Origin: Chryseobacterium sp. YIM B08800
GTDB lineage: Bacteria; Bacteroidota; Bacteroidia; Flavobacteriales; Weeksellaceae
DNA length: 64,000 nt
Direction of reading: 5' to 3'
Assembly (NCBI RefSeq): GCF_026163565.1
Contig: NZ_JAPDKN010000005.1
Span: 1 to 64,000 of the forward strand
Shown here: in pieces, positions 40,915 through 43,637 of the stretch
Numbering within the stretch: the first letter of the stretch is position 1
How the letters are laid out: each line of letters opens with the position of its first letter
Notes under the pieces: model-generated
Told to the model about the DNA's origin: nothing
Seen by the model: only the letters and a program-made list of their open reading frames with translations
Databases searched by the model: none
Translations under genes and position numbers: made by a program

Positions 40915-40974
40915 AATTTTATTTCCTATATTTAAAAAGGAGAAGGAATTTGAATTCTGAACTCCCTTATAATA

Positions 40975-40998
40975 AAATACCGATTTTCGTCGGTATTT
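40975..40998. terminator. Bidirectional hairpin between vsr and the HTH gene
   Basis: A 9-bp perfect stem (AAATACCGA / TCGGTATTT) with a TTTTCG loop. It serves the convergent vsr and HTH genes and overlaps the last codon of the HTH gene. Confidence 0.75.
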
Positions 40999-41230
40999 AT
41001 TCATTTATAAGTTTAAAAAATTGTTCAAGAGTAAGCTTTCTTGCCTTGCAAATTCTATAGAGTGTTTCAACAGGAATTCTATATGTATTATCACTCTTAA
41101 TTTTTCGTACAGTACTTTCTTCAATATCATGACTTTTAGCAAACAAGTTCTGTGACTTATTTTCTTTAAGCCAAGGAATCAACCAATTTTTAGTTATATA
41201 CGAACAGATTTTCTCGTTTATGTCAATCAT
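40997..41230 (-). CDS. Small HTH regulator beside the Cas12f-sigma unit
   Basis: A 77-aa DNA-binding protein. The ATG at 41230 (MIDINEKICSY) is preferred; eight extra residues are possible upstream. A helix-turn-helix is visible as LFAKSHDIEESTVRKIKSD, and KARKLTLEQFFKLINE closes the domain. It is divergent from the structured RNA, sigma factor and Cas12f genes, with a perfect palindrome between them, so it is the best candidate repressor of that unit. Alternatively it is an orphan regulator of the neighbouring restriction system. Confidence 0.7.
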   Translation of the reverse strand: MIDINEKICSYITKNWLIPWLKENKSQNLFAKSHDIEESTVRKIKSDNTYRIPVETLYRICKARKLTLEQFFKLINE

Positions 41231-41260
41231 ATAGCAAAAGAAATATTTTGACATTGAAAT

Positions 41261-41282
41261 ATTACGGTCGTTCGACCGTAAT
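41261..41282. promoter_or_regulatory. Perfect palindromic operator candidate
   Basis: ATTACGGTCG, two bases TT, then its exact reverse complement. It begins 30 bases upstream of the HTH gene start and ends 19 bases before the -33 element of the RNA promoter, in a position to control both directions. Much more GC-rich than its surroundings. Confidence 0.65.
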
Positions 41283-41301
41283 TAAATTATTTTTATTATA
41301 T

Positions 41302-41332
41302 TTGGAATAAATTATTTATAAAAGTAATTTTG
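41302..41332 (+). promoter_or_regulatory. Promoter of the structured RNA and sigma-Cas12f operon
   Basis: TTG (41302-41304), 20-base spacer, TAATTTTG (41325-41332). Predicted start near 41338, directly before the structured region. A second -7-like TATATTTG at 41297 lacks a -33 partner. Confidence 0.65.
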
Positions 41333-41337
41333 CGATA

Positions 41338-41580
41338 GTTTAAGGAAATATAGAAGCTATTGCTTAGATTCTCGACTGGAAAACTGGCACTTTTCAAAAA
41401 GCAACGAGAGGATAAGTAAATGTGCCCACGACTTCGGCGTGGGCTCACTTATCGTTGCTTGGTATGCCAGTACCACCGGTCGGTAAGTTGAGTTCCACGC
41501 CTTTCTTTTGGGCAAAATGTAGTGGCTGAGTATTTTCCAATGAAGTATACAGTTCGACTTATTTAATCAAAGCAGTTCTT
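41338..41580 (+). ncRNA. Structured RNA, candidate guide RNA scaffold for the dead Cas12f
   Basis: A dense set of nested helices: ACTGGCA (41383-41389) with 41465-41471; AAGCAAC (41399-41405) with 41454-41460; GATAAGT (41411-41417) with 41447-41453; GCCCACG (41424-41430) with 41438-41444 around ACTTCGG; AAGTTGAGTT (41485-41494) with 41551-41560, enclosing CCAC/GTGG (41495-41498 / 41522-41525). TCTCG (41370-41374) can also pair with 41405-41409 as a possible pseudoknot. The layout and motifs such as CGAG...GTGCC and CGGTAAG recall Cas12f tracrRNA scaffolds. If it is a guide RNA, the guide should follow the last helix, from about 41561. The exact ends and guide are inferred, not seen. Confidence 0.55.
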
Positions 41581-41610
41581 CAAGCAATAATTAGCTCAAA
41601 TACACTGCTT
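41570..41610 (+). promoter_or_regulatory. Inverted repeat abutting the sigma factor start codon
   Basis: AAGCAGT (41570-41576) is complementary to ACTGCTT (41604-41610), which ends directly before the ATG at 41611. Pairing would fold the ribosome-entry region and could hold sigma translation down, and would be exclusive with use of 41561-41580 as a guide. Confidence 0.4.
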
Positions 41611-42426
41611 ATGAAAAGAACAAACTCTCTGCCCCGAAACCTCACCGATTTTCAGCTATACAAACTGTTGAAAGAAGGAAACCCCGTTGCTTTGGAACAC
41701 ATTCATCTACGCCACAAGAGACTTCTTTTCTGGCTTGGATGGCAGGTGTTGAAGGATGATTTTGTAGTAGACACTATTGTTCAGGATACCTTTCTAAAAT
41801 TGTGGACACACCGTGAAACCATTGAATCGCCTGATCATATTATAGGCTTTTTACGTTTTGTTATGAAAAGGGATTGTATGGCATATGTCAGTGCTCCCAA
41901 AAATAAATTCACCCGCCTGATGCCTTCTCTTGACAGTTTTGAGAACTATCAGGATTATCTTGCAGGTTACGACCCCCTAAGAGATAAAGAGCACTTAAAT
42001 ATCCAGGAATCCGATCAAAACAAATTCGATGAAATCGTAAAGGTGTTGCCCGTCTTAAACCCAAAACGGAAACACCTGATAGAACTCTGCCTTGAATACG
42101 GCTTTCAGTACAAACCCATCGCAGAGGCTATGGGAAGTAGCGTGACAGGCATCAGCGCCGAGGTAAACAAAGCCATAGATAATCTTAGGAAAATTCTTAA
42201 AGTCGCTTCTTTTGAGAAGCCGGAGGAAAAAGCTTTCCATTATAACCAGCAGTCAGAAAAACTCAGCAGTCAGCAACGCGAAATCATCAAAAGAAGGTTT
42301 GAGCAGAAATCCTCTTTTACGGTAATTGCAAAAGAACTCAAACTGTCTGAAAAAGAAGTCCACCGCGAATTTCTTTACGCCTATCAGCAACTGCAAAATC
42401 AAAACCGATCTCAAATACTGCTTTAA
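41611..42426 (+). CDS. ECF-like sigma factor partnered with dead Cas12f
   Basis: A 271-aa sigma-70-family protein. Region 2 spans about 12-95 (LTDFQLYKLLKEGNPVALEH ... TIVQDTFLKLWTHRETI), region 4 about 136-197 (VLPVLNPKRKHLIELC ... YKPIAEAMGSSVTGI). Typical ECF factors stop there at about 180-200 residues; this one adds a second region-4-like unit (about 208-262: LSSQQREIIKRRFEQKSSF, then VIAKELKLSEKEVHREF). No anti-sigma gene is adjacent. Its stop is one base before the Cas12f start, so the two are translated together. Inferred role: to engage RNA polymerase at DNA sites chosen by the Cas12f-RNA complex rather than by a promoter sequence. Codon use is richer in GC than the neighbouring restriction genes. 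Confidence 0.85.
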   Translation: MKRTNSLPRNLTDFQLYKLLKEGNPVALEHIHLRHKRLLFWLGWQVLKDDFVVDTIVQDTFLKLWTHRETIESPDHIIGFLRFVMKRDCMAYVSAPKNKFTRLMPSLDSFENYQDYLAGYDPLRDKEHLNIQESDQNKFDEIVKVLPVLNPKRKHLIELCLEYGFQYKPIAEAMGSSVTGISAEVNKAIDNLRKILKVASFEKPEEKAFHYNQQSEKLSSQQREIIKRRFEQKSSFTVIAKELKLSEKEVHREFLYAYQQLQNQNRSQILL

Positions 42427-42427
42427 C

Positions 42428-43522
42428 ATGGAAAAATCCACCATAACCCTGACCCGGAAAATTCAGCTGGTGATTGATGTTCCATCTGAAGATAAAAGCC
42501 AGATGTGGGAAAAACTCTACCGGTATCAGAACCGCTGTTTCCGTGCGGCTAATCTGATCGTTTCCCATCTGTATGTACAGGAAATGATCAAGGATTTCTT
42601 TTACCTCACAGAAGAAATCCAATACAAGTTAGCTGATGAAAAAAAAGATAAAATGGGAATGTTTGACCGCTCCAAAACAAACACCACAGCACGCCTGGTC
42701 TTTGACCGTTTTAAAGGCGAAATCCCCACCGACATTCTTGGATGCCTGAACAATACGATTCAATCCACCTTTTCCAAAAACAAAGCCGACTATTGGCAGG
42801 GATCAAAATCCTTAATGAATTTTAAAAAAGACATTCCCATTCCGCTTCCTGTCAAGTGTATCAGCAAAATGAAGTATGATCCAGAAAAGAAAGCTTTTTG
42901 CTTCAATATGTTTGCGATCCCAGTAAAAACATATTTGGGAAAAGATTTCTCTGATAAACATTTAATCATGGAACGCTTTTTAAAAGAAGAGATCAAGCTG
43001 TGCACATCCCAGATCCAGCTGAAAGACGGTAAGATTTTTTGGCTCGCGGTCTTTGAATTTGAGAAAGAAGACCACGGTTTAAAACCTGAAATCATTGCTG
43101 AAGCGTCTTTGTCTTTAGAACACCCAATCGTGGTAAAAGCCAGCAATGTGCGGATGACTATTGGTTCGAAAGAGGAATTTCTGTATCGAAGGTTGGCAAT
43201 ACAAGCCAGTAACAAAAGAATTCGAGCCGGAGTCGCTTATTCCCGTTCCGGAAATGGAACCAAACGGAAACAGAAGGCACTGCACAAAACAGAGAATCTG
43301 GAAAACCGTTTTGTCAGTCATCGACTTCATCTTTACAGCAGGATGCTGATTGATTTCTGCATCCGGCAACAGGCAGGCACCTTGATTCTTAAAGATCAGG
43401 AAGACAAAATAGGGATTGCAAAAGAACAGGAGTTTGTGCTTCGCAACTGGAGCTATTATGAATTGCAGACCAAAATAAAATACAAAGCAGAAAAAGCCGG
43501 TATCGAATTGATCATCGGATAA
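42428..43522 (+). CDS. Nuclease-dead, C-terminally shortened Cas12f homologue
   Basis: A 364-aa protein of the Cas12f/TnpB superfamily, starting at ATG 42428 (MEKSTITLTRK). By eye it aligns with Cas12f1 through the N-terminal half (RAANLIVSHLYVQEMIK, NFKKDIPIPLPVK) and RuvC region (YRRLAIQASNKRIRAG, LRNWSYYELQTKIKYKAEKAG). The RuvC-I Asp of the GIDVG motif is absent (PIVVKASN, about 233-240); the RuvC-II Glu of the MENL motif is Lys322 in LILKDQ; and the protein ends at ELIIG, before the zinc finger and the third RuvC aspartate. It therefore cannot cut DNA but may still bind guide RNA and target DNA. The full fit to a sigma-coupled role is inference from context. Confidence 0.87.
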   Translation: MEKSTITLTRKIQLVIDVPSEDKSQMWEKLYRYQNRCFRAANLIVSHLYVQEMIKDFFYLTEEIQYKLADEKKDKMGMFDRSKTNTTARLVFDRFKGEIPTDILGCLNNTIQSTFSKNKADYWQGSKSLMNFKKDIPIPLPVKCISKMKYDPEKKAFCFNMFAIPVKTYLGKDFSDKHLIMERFLKEEIKLCTSQIQLKDGKIFWLAVFEFEKEDHGLKPEIIAEASLSLEHPIVVKASNVRMTIGSKEEFLYRRLAIQASNKRIRAGVAYSRSGNGTKRKQKALHKTENLENRFVSHRLHLYSRMLIDFCIRQQAGTLILKDQEDKIGIAKEQEFVLRNWSYYELQTKIKYKAEKAGIELIIG

Positions 43523-43530
43523 CTAAAAAA

Positions 43531-43637
43531 AACGAGGGTGCTTGTAAACCCGTAGGGTGAGGTTTTGAACACTCACTAAATACTGGAAACTAAATACTTT
43601 TTCCGGTGTATACAACGGCGTGGGTTTCTTTTTTTTC
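43531..43637 (+). ncRNA. Structured 3' region with terminal T-run
   Basis: Directly after the Cas12f stop: small hairpins (GGGT/ACCC near 43536-43551, GTGAG 43557-43561 with CTCAC 43572-43576), a 9-bp direct repeat CTAAATACT at 43576 and 43590, then TTTTCC-GG-TGTATACA, and a run of eight T at 43629-43636. AAACCC (43546-43551) can pair with GGGTTT (43622-43627). It is at least the operon terminator. It could also be a second RNA or the guide-bearing one, since its CTAAATACT...GTATACA segment resembles 41525-41550 in the upstream RNA. Confidence 0.4.

What the first reader, a model, noticed from the sequence alone, without database searches (positions are those of the whole stretch)
41338..43522. 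Nuclease-dead Cas12f fused by operon to a sigma factor: an RNA-guided transcription unit
Seen: a sigma-70-family gene ends one base before a Cas12f-like gene, both behind a highly structured RNA with its own promoter. The Cas12f lacks the RuvC-I Asp, has Lys322 for the RuvC-II Glu and stops before the zinc finger and RuvC-III Asp. There is no CRISPR array, no cas1/cas2 and no transposase. Known: Cas12f relatives bind guide RNA and DNA; I recall recent reports of dead Cas12f working with ECF sigma factors in Bacteroidota. Inference: the complex recruits RNA polymerase to a guided site and turns on one or more genes without a normal promoter.
Basis: partly seen in the sequence, partly recalled or inferred. 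Interest (0 to 1): 0.96.

Follow-up and report, generated by a model that had tools for sequence, protein, structure and literature searches.

The report
RNA-guided sigma switch for leader RNAs
A likely Chryseobacterium-type bacterium carries a CRISPR-like protein with a dead cutting site beside a sigma factor and a predicted guide RNA whose guide matches a structured leader sequence in front of its own genes and of an outer-membrane nutrient-uptake operon, so it would likely switch those genes on by RNA guidance.

Summary
Window 41611-42426 (ECF sigma) and 42428-43522 (nuclease-dead Cas12f) are relatives of the chains in PDB 9n9q/9n9c, so the protein pair is a new member of a kind already solved. 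Two corrections. (1) The guide RNA is not the structured RNA upstream: it lies downstream, outside the given coordinates (about 43523-43636), with a conserved scaffold and a 3' guide GGCGTGGGTTTC running into a T-tract. (2) The upstream structured RNA (about 41338-41509) is the apparent target: a covarying, multi-copy leader family without an Rfam 15 match, with its own promoter, a terminator-like 3' end, a small divergent gene before it (52 of 54) and often SusC behind it. The own genome has two copies: before sigma-dCas12f itself and before SusC-SusD-S9 peptidase. GGCGTGGGYT occurs six times in 4.24 Mb: the guide, both leaders, three coding frames. Some relatives match guide to leader over 9-14 nt; other guides match nothing found. 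Predicted: transcription starts inside the leader, past its terminator-like helix, giving self-activation plus SusCD activation. Leaders also occur in many genomes without dCas12f, and nothing here measures expression.

The parts
40997..41254 (-). Small divergent HTH (Cro/C1-type) gene, 85 aa; inferred regulator of the leader promoter
   Evidence: PF13443 HTH_26 E 4e-06; 52 of 54 leaders fetched elsewhere also have a divergent ORF of 65-160 aa 40-260 bases upstream
41261..41282 (.). Palindrome ATTACGGTCG-TT-CGACCGTAAT, possible operator
   Evidence: read from the sequence
41301..41332 (+). Bacteroidota-type promoter: TTTG 41301-41304 and TAATTTTG 41325-41332 (consensus recalled)
   Evidence: sequence; TAnnTTTG box in 95 of 98 leaders against 5% of random windows, spaced pair in 81 of 98 against 1.3%
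41338..41509 (+). Structured leader RNA; start inferred, model match 41365-41507
   Evidence: R1 154.9 bits
41436..41443 (+). GGCGTGGG in the leader, apparent guide target; preceding base is C, or G if the protospacer starts one base later
41490..41509 (+). GAGTTCCACGCC, pairing strand for GGCGTGGGCTC, then T-rich tract: terminator-like end
   Evidence: 97.5% of cells paired; T-rich tail in 41 of 44 and 54 of 54
41611..42426 (+). ECF sigma factor, 271 aa, with a second region-4-like stretch
   Evidence: PDB 9n9q_C RpoE E 5.8e-76
42428..43522 (+). Nuclease-dead Cas12f, 364 aa
   Evidence: PDB 9n9c E 1.5e-161; PADLOC Cas12f 9.5e-51
43523..43616 (+). Guide RNA scaffold (conserved core 43534-43616; 5' end not known)
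43617..43636 (+). Guide GGCGTGGGTTTC (43617-43628) followed by a T-run

Best explanation
This is a sigma-dCas12f operon with a predicted downstream guide RNA whose guide matches a structured leader in front of its own operon and in front of a SusC-SusD operon, and it likely recruits RNA polymerase to those leaders and would start transcription past their terminator-like 3' end. Shown by sequence: relationship to the solved chains, the dead RuvC site, the conserved scaffold, the covarying leader family and the 8-nt match. Inferred: (1) dCas12f loads the guide RNA and opens the leader DNA at GGCGTGGG, on the strand that reads toward the downstream gene. (2) The partner sigma brings RNA polymerase. 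(3) Transcription starts downstream of the target, so the new transcript lacks the GGCGTGGG strand that pairs with GAGTTCCACGCC and is not stopped there. (4) At 41436 this is positive autoregulation; at contig C100 it turns on SusC-SusD-S9 peptidase. From the leader's own promoter, in contrast, a short leader RNA would be made that mostly ends at the T-tract.
For: Solved relatives; co-occurrence of sigma and dCas12f. Scaffold conserved in 44 distinct downstream regions and in distant relatives, with the sequence after TATACAAC varying between copies. Leader with 11 of 25 pairs changed on both sides and kept, 98.6% of cells paired, at most 39% when slid. Leader upstream of sigma in 46 of 62 distinct cassettes. 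Own genome: GGCGTGGGYT at six places, two of them the two leaders. Same-strand guide-leader matches in other genomes: 12 nt in G048, G105 and G092, 11 in G118 and G155, 9 in G044, 12 in G127 and 14 in G032. For each of these the match to the leader strand is longer than to its complement (6-7 nt). C100 operon: SusC TIGR04056 3.1e-201, SusD, S9 peptidase. TldR, a related dead nuclease, works with guides as short as 6 nt (PMC13418256, passages seen).
Against: The own guide matches its leaders over only 8 contiguous nt (p 0.0165 against shuffled guides) and differs at nt 9. GGCGTGGG is conserved in the leader for its structure anyway, and leaders occur in 89 of 151 family genomes without dCas12f. 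In one search, 16 of 26 guide-genome pairs gave no match better than shuffled guides (p > 0.05), among them all three G125 guides and all those of G113, G117 and G121. In G098 and G043, 6 of 7 leaders compared read GGCGTGAG, a mismatch at nt 7; 8 of 37 distinct cassettes have AGC instead of GGC at positions 7-9 of their own leader. 16 of 62 distinct cassettes had no leader in the stretch examined. No transcript, binding or activation was measured; the terminator loop is unusually large.
Confidence: 0.6

Rival explanations
1. dCas12f with its guide RNA acts at the leaders as a roadblock or repressor, as TldR does; it would silence leader promoters, and sigma would serve elsewhere.
For: Dead homologues such as TldR repress (PMC13418256, abstract and passages). 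The target lies inside the transcribed leader, a place where a bound complex could block elongation.
Against: The pair is related to a solved dCas12f-RpoE entry, and sigma is found with dCas12f in all 44 genomes that have it at E <= 1e-15.
Confidence: 0.12
2. The guide pairs with the leader RNA, not the DNA: it would compete with the terminator-like helix (antitermination), or the leader RNA would act as a decoy for the guide RNA.
For: The leader RNA holds CCACGCC, complementary to GGCGTGG of the guide; the own guide matches the leader strand over 8 nt and its complement over 7.
Against: Longer and shifted guides match the leader strand over 9-12 nt and its complement over only 6-7 nt.
Confidence: 0.1
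3. The leader match is a by-product of a conserved hairpin; the real targets are other sites or incoming mobile DNA.
For: Own match only 8 nt; many guides of relatives are unmatched; the cassette sits in a mobilisable island with Gabija, a McrB-like gene, a methyltransferase and Vsr.
Against: The only other exact GGCGTGGGYT sites in the genome are in three open coding frames. Guide and leader agree over 11-14 nt in several genomes.
Confidence: 0.14

Closest known systems
dCas12f-sigmaE RNA-guided transcription (PDB 9n9c, 9n9m, 9n9o, 9n9q; recalled: Hoffmann et al. 2025 preprint 'Exapted CRISPR-Cas12f homologs drive RNA-guided transcription', not seen)
   Same: Full-length dCas12f relative, ECF sigma partner relative, dead RuvC; target before SusCD and a 5'-G motif agree with what I recall
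   Different: The apparent target is a multi-copy structured leader that also stands before the cassette itself, and the own match is short. Whether the published system does the same could not be checked
Cas12f nucleases (PDB 9nzo, 9nzr, 8dzj)
   Same: Shared protein family (E 3.3e-37, 3.4e-37, 6.4e-15)
   Different: RuvC Asp and Glu replaced, C-terminus missing, no CRISPR-like array near it
TldR, TnpB-derived RNA-guided repressors (PMC13418256, passages seen)
   Same: Exapted dead nuclease with a guide RNA and a short seed
   Different: Closer to Cas12f models (PADLOC 9.5e-51) than to NCBIfam guided_TnpB (51.4 bits, cut-off 100); has a sigma partner; predicted activator

Membership tests
dCas12f-sigma RNA-guided transcription system | dCas12f similar over its full length to the solved one | tested here: met
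   9n9c, residues 1-364 to 1-365, E 1.5e-161
dCas12f-sigma RNA-guided transcription system | RuvC active site lost | tested here: met
   Asp to Ser227, Glu to Lys322 against 9nzo, early stop
dCas12f-sigma RNA-guided transcription system | Adjacent partner ECF sigma that co-occurs with it | tested here: met
   9n9q_C E 5.8e-76; 44 of 197 genomes with sigma against 46 of 197 with dCas12f, two of them fragments
dCas12f-sigma RNA-guided transcription system | Guide RNA with conserved scaffold and 3' guide | tested here: met
   comparative only; transcription not shown
dCas12f-sigma RNA-guided transcription system | Guide-matched genomic target with 5'-G motif upstream of genes (motif recalled) | tested here: inconclusive
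   leader sites found; base before the match is C or A in the own genome, G only if the protospacer starts one base later; G in G044 and G092
dCas12f-sigma RNA-guided transcription system | Transcription from the target without a promoter | not testable with these tools
   needs 5'-end mapping
Type V-F CRISPR-Cas immune effector | Active RuvC nuclease | tested here: not met
Type V-F CRISPR-Cas immune effector | CRISPR array nearby | tested here: not met
   30000-51000 only
TldR | TnpB-like dead nuclease without sigma partner | tested here: not met
Any Rfam 15 RNA family (for the leader) | Covariance-model match at the leader | tested here: not met
   one sub-threshold BSnc120 hit at 40931-41014, outside the leader; five loci from four leaders, no hit at a leader

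The most novel reading that the evidence does not exclude
One short guide RNA turns a widespread, undescribed structured leader-RNA family into an RNA-guided regulon: the sigma-dCas12f complex initiates inside the leader, downstream of one strand of its terminator helix, and so bypasses attenuation at its own operon and at SusCD operons at once, a natural self-amplifying CRISPR-activation circuit carried on a mobilisable island.
Probability: 0.45. Interest if true: 0.82.

Novelty: new variant of a known kind. Interest (0 to 1): 0.62.

Why it matters
The protein pair is a relative of solved structures; what is added is where it acts. If the guide-leader reading is right, it explains why 47 of 62 distinct cassettes carry the same guide start, gives a testable regulon with self-activation, and shows RNA-guided initiation used to jump over an RNA leader. 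It also exposes a structured RNA family, without an Rfam 15 match, in 133 of 197 family genomes and often ahead of SusC genes.

Tried and rejected
Upstream structured RNA as the guide RNA: rejected. It is multi-copy and present in genomes without dCas12f, while the downstream block has a constant scaffold with a varying 3' part.

Other genomic targets of the window guide: with one mismatch allowed, GGCGTGGGTTTC has 4 matches in the own genome including itself, against 9 for the reversed control pattern. The other three are two coding frames and a terminator-like hairpin.

Rfam name for the leader: none. One of the five loci has a whalefall-1 hit downstream of its leader.

Structure prediction of dCas12f: mean pLDDT 53.8 from a 15-row alignment; not used and no fold search run.

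Literature: ten searches listed no paper that I recognised as being on a dCas12f-sigma pair or on this leader. I looked at passages of five listed papers; the rest I saw as listings. Three ids were not held. The library lacks bioRxiv's own preprints and most subscription journals, so this says little about print at large.

Faulty steps corrected: the SusC query was translated in a wrong frame (redone; SusC queries checked with NCBIfam). In one search the T-tail count for the 54 non-cassette leaders gave 24 of 54 because the pattern caught a later motif; one search anchored it and gave 54 of 54 (at least 5 T in 9 nt). One search used 44 of the 50 cassette leaders (four repeats and two weak ones left out).

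Full report
What is there. The window lies in a 4.24 Mb genome of 132 contigs. The closest named relatives of its dCas12f in one scan are from Epilithonimonas and Chryseobacterium (93-95% identity for the best five of 27 loci), so the host is inferred to be of that group. Sigma (41611-42426) and dCas12f (42428-43522) are one base apart. dCas12f matches PDB 9n9c, 'Nuclease-deactivated Cas12f', over its whole length (E 1.5e-161), and sigma matches the RpoE chain of 9n9q (E 5.8e-76). Other Cas12f chains match more weakly (9nzo, 3.3e-37). In the 9nzo alignment the window has Ser opposite the Asp of DLG and Lys opposite the second RuvC Glu; Ser227 is the same in 15 of 15 relatives aligned. An AlphaFold model was too poor to use.

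Co-occurrence. dCas12f is found in 46 of 197 genomes of the family and this sigma (E <= 1e-15) in 44 of 197. The two lists differ only by G069 and G119, where one search shows dCas12f fragments of 31 and 75 residues. The own genome holds one copy.

The guide RNA. Downstream of dCas12f lies a block conserved across the 44 distinct downstream regions aligned and in relatives of about 56-63% protein identity. Its consensus has 14 pairs, two with changes on both sides (18 rows), and it ends in TATACAAC (with small variants), after which the sequence differs between copies. Seven relatives read closely have two to four copies in tandem (L062, L063, L064, L048, L049, L075, L076). The window copy reads GGCGTGGGTTTC, then T's. 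In 47 of 62 distinct cassettes the first guide begins GGCGTGGG. A single-sequence fold of the window copy is not remarkable (z -1.39, 20 of 200 shuffles as good).

The upstream RNA is a leader family. A 201-base query from 41330-41530 has matches in 17 of 19 genomes given, the own one included. Forty-one leader sequences, cassette and other, were aligned. For the structure, 98.6% of cells pair and 11 of 25 pairs change on both sides and stay paired; no slid version exceeds 39%. The last strand, GAGTTCCACGCC in the window, pairs with GGCGTGGGCTC (97.5% of cells), and a T-rich tract follows (41 of 44 cassette leaders; 54 of 54 others). It looks like a terminator, though its loop is large. A TAnnTTTG box precedes 95 of 98 (background 5%), and the spaced TTTG pair 81 of 98 (background 1.3%). 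Model R1 finds the family in 133 of 197 family genomes and in 67 of 296 genomes drawn from the order, which include family members. There was no Rfam 15 match at the leader.

What lies around the leaders. In 54 copies examined, nearly all outside the near-sigma cassette setting: SusC behind 24, a TlpA-like gene only in 1, a small protein of about 180 aa without SusC in 21, sigma in 1, nothing recognised in 7. Of those 7, L107 is at a contig end. L093, and also the TlpA-only L105, show TlpA-like then SusC-like genes in longer fetches (the G118 ones checked with NCBIfam). Five (L095, L096, L097, L106, L111) lie about 1.8-2.8 kb upstream of a sigma-dCas12f pair on the same strand, by the coordinates. 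The small protein has no Pfam family. A divergent ORF of 65-160 aa lies 40-260 bases upstream in 52 of 54; only the two of the own genome were tested, and both are HTH proteins.

Own genome. R1 finds two leaders, C78 (154.9 bits) and C100 (136.1 bits); the next score is 23.3 bits. Behind C100 lie SusC (TIGR04056, 3.1e-201), SusD and an S9 peptidase. GGCGTGGGYT occurs six times: the guide, the two leaders and three open coding frames. The two leaders are homologous, so they count for little more than one independent event.

Guide against target. Contiguous same-strand matches to leaders of the same genome (26 guide-genome pairs): own 8 nt (p 0.0165 against shuffled guides), G044 9, G048 12, G092 12, G105 12 and 11, G118 11, G155 11, and these p are at most 0.0015. 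The other pairs fail: all three G125 guides (5-7 nt), the second G092 guide (7 nt, p 0.21), the guides of G113, G117 and G121, and the guide types TGAGCGG, GGGGCGG, AGAGCGCC and AGAGCTCC. By reading, the common prefix is 12 nt in G127 and 14 in G032 (where guide and leader share the variant GGCGTGGGTCTC), 8 in G120, G142 and G169, 9 in G133 and G135, and 10 for one of two G095 leaders. In G098 and G043, 6 of 7 leaders compared read GGCGTGAG. The matches run along the strand of the downstream gene and are longer there than on the complement (9-12 against 6-7 nt, own 8 against 7), which favours a DNA target over RNA pairing.

How it may work (inferred). A complex bound at GGCGTGGG that starts transcription downstream would make a transcript without one strand of the terminator-like helix, so the gene behind would be read. 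At 41436, 175 bases before the sigma start codon, this is self-activation; 46 of 62 distinct cassettes carry a leader upstream of sigma, and the other 16 showed none in the stretch held. At C100 it would raise SusCD. The HTH protein may control the leader's own promoter through the palindrome 41261-41282. The weakest link is that leaders are far more common than dCas12f: they are in 44 of 46 genomes with it and in 89 of 151 without (Fisher p 5e-7, not corrected for kinship). The leader therefore has a life of its own, which the cassette would exploit.

Known or new. The protein pair is a new member of the dCas12f-sigma kind, known to me from PDB names in the calls and from a recalled preprint that could not be opened. 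The multi-copy leader as target, and the self-target, may or may not be in that work; I found nothing on it in the held library (searches under Tried and rejected). I file it as a new variant because of the leader and self-target, with that reservation.

Noticed in passing
window 30489-50791: The cassette sits in an integrative island next to dnaK with Gabija GajA/GajB, a McrB-like gene and its partner, a DNA methyltransferase, Vsr, a relaxase-like gene, primase, VapE-like helicase and tyrosine integrase. Relatives of the relaxase (5 of 47), primase (10 of 47) or VapE (4 of 47) lie beside other cassettes.
   Followed up: partly
L172-L211: The leader also stands before a conserved protein of about 180 aa with no Pfam family, and in many genomes without dCas12f; its role there is unknown.
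   Followed up: partly
L048, L049, L062, L063, L064, L075, L076, downstream of dCas12f: Tandem arrays of two to four guide RNAs; guides such as TGAGCGG, GGGGCGG, AGAGCGCC and AGAGCTCC have no target found.
   Followed up: partly
window 41611-42426: The sigma factor has two region-4 stretches, at residues 141-188 and 217-253; the second may be a docking or extra DNA-binding part.
   Followed up: no
L262:1902-1954: Whalefall-1 RNA match (42.1 bits, gathering 37) downstream of a leader in genome G428.
   Followed up: no
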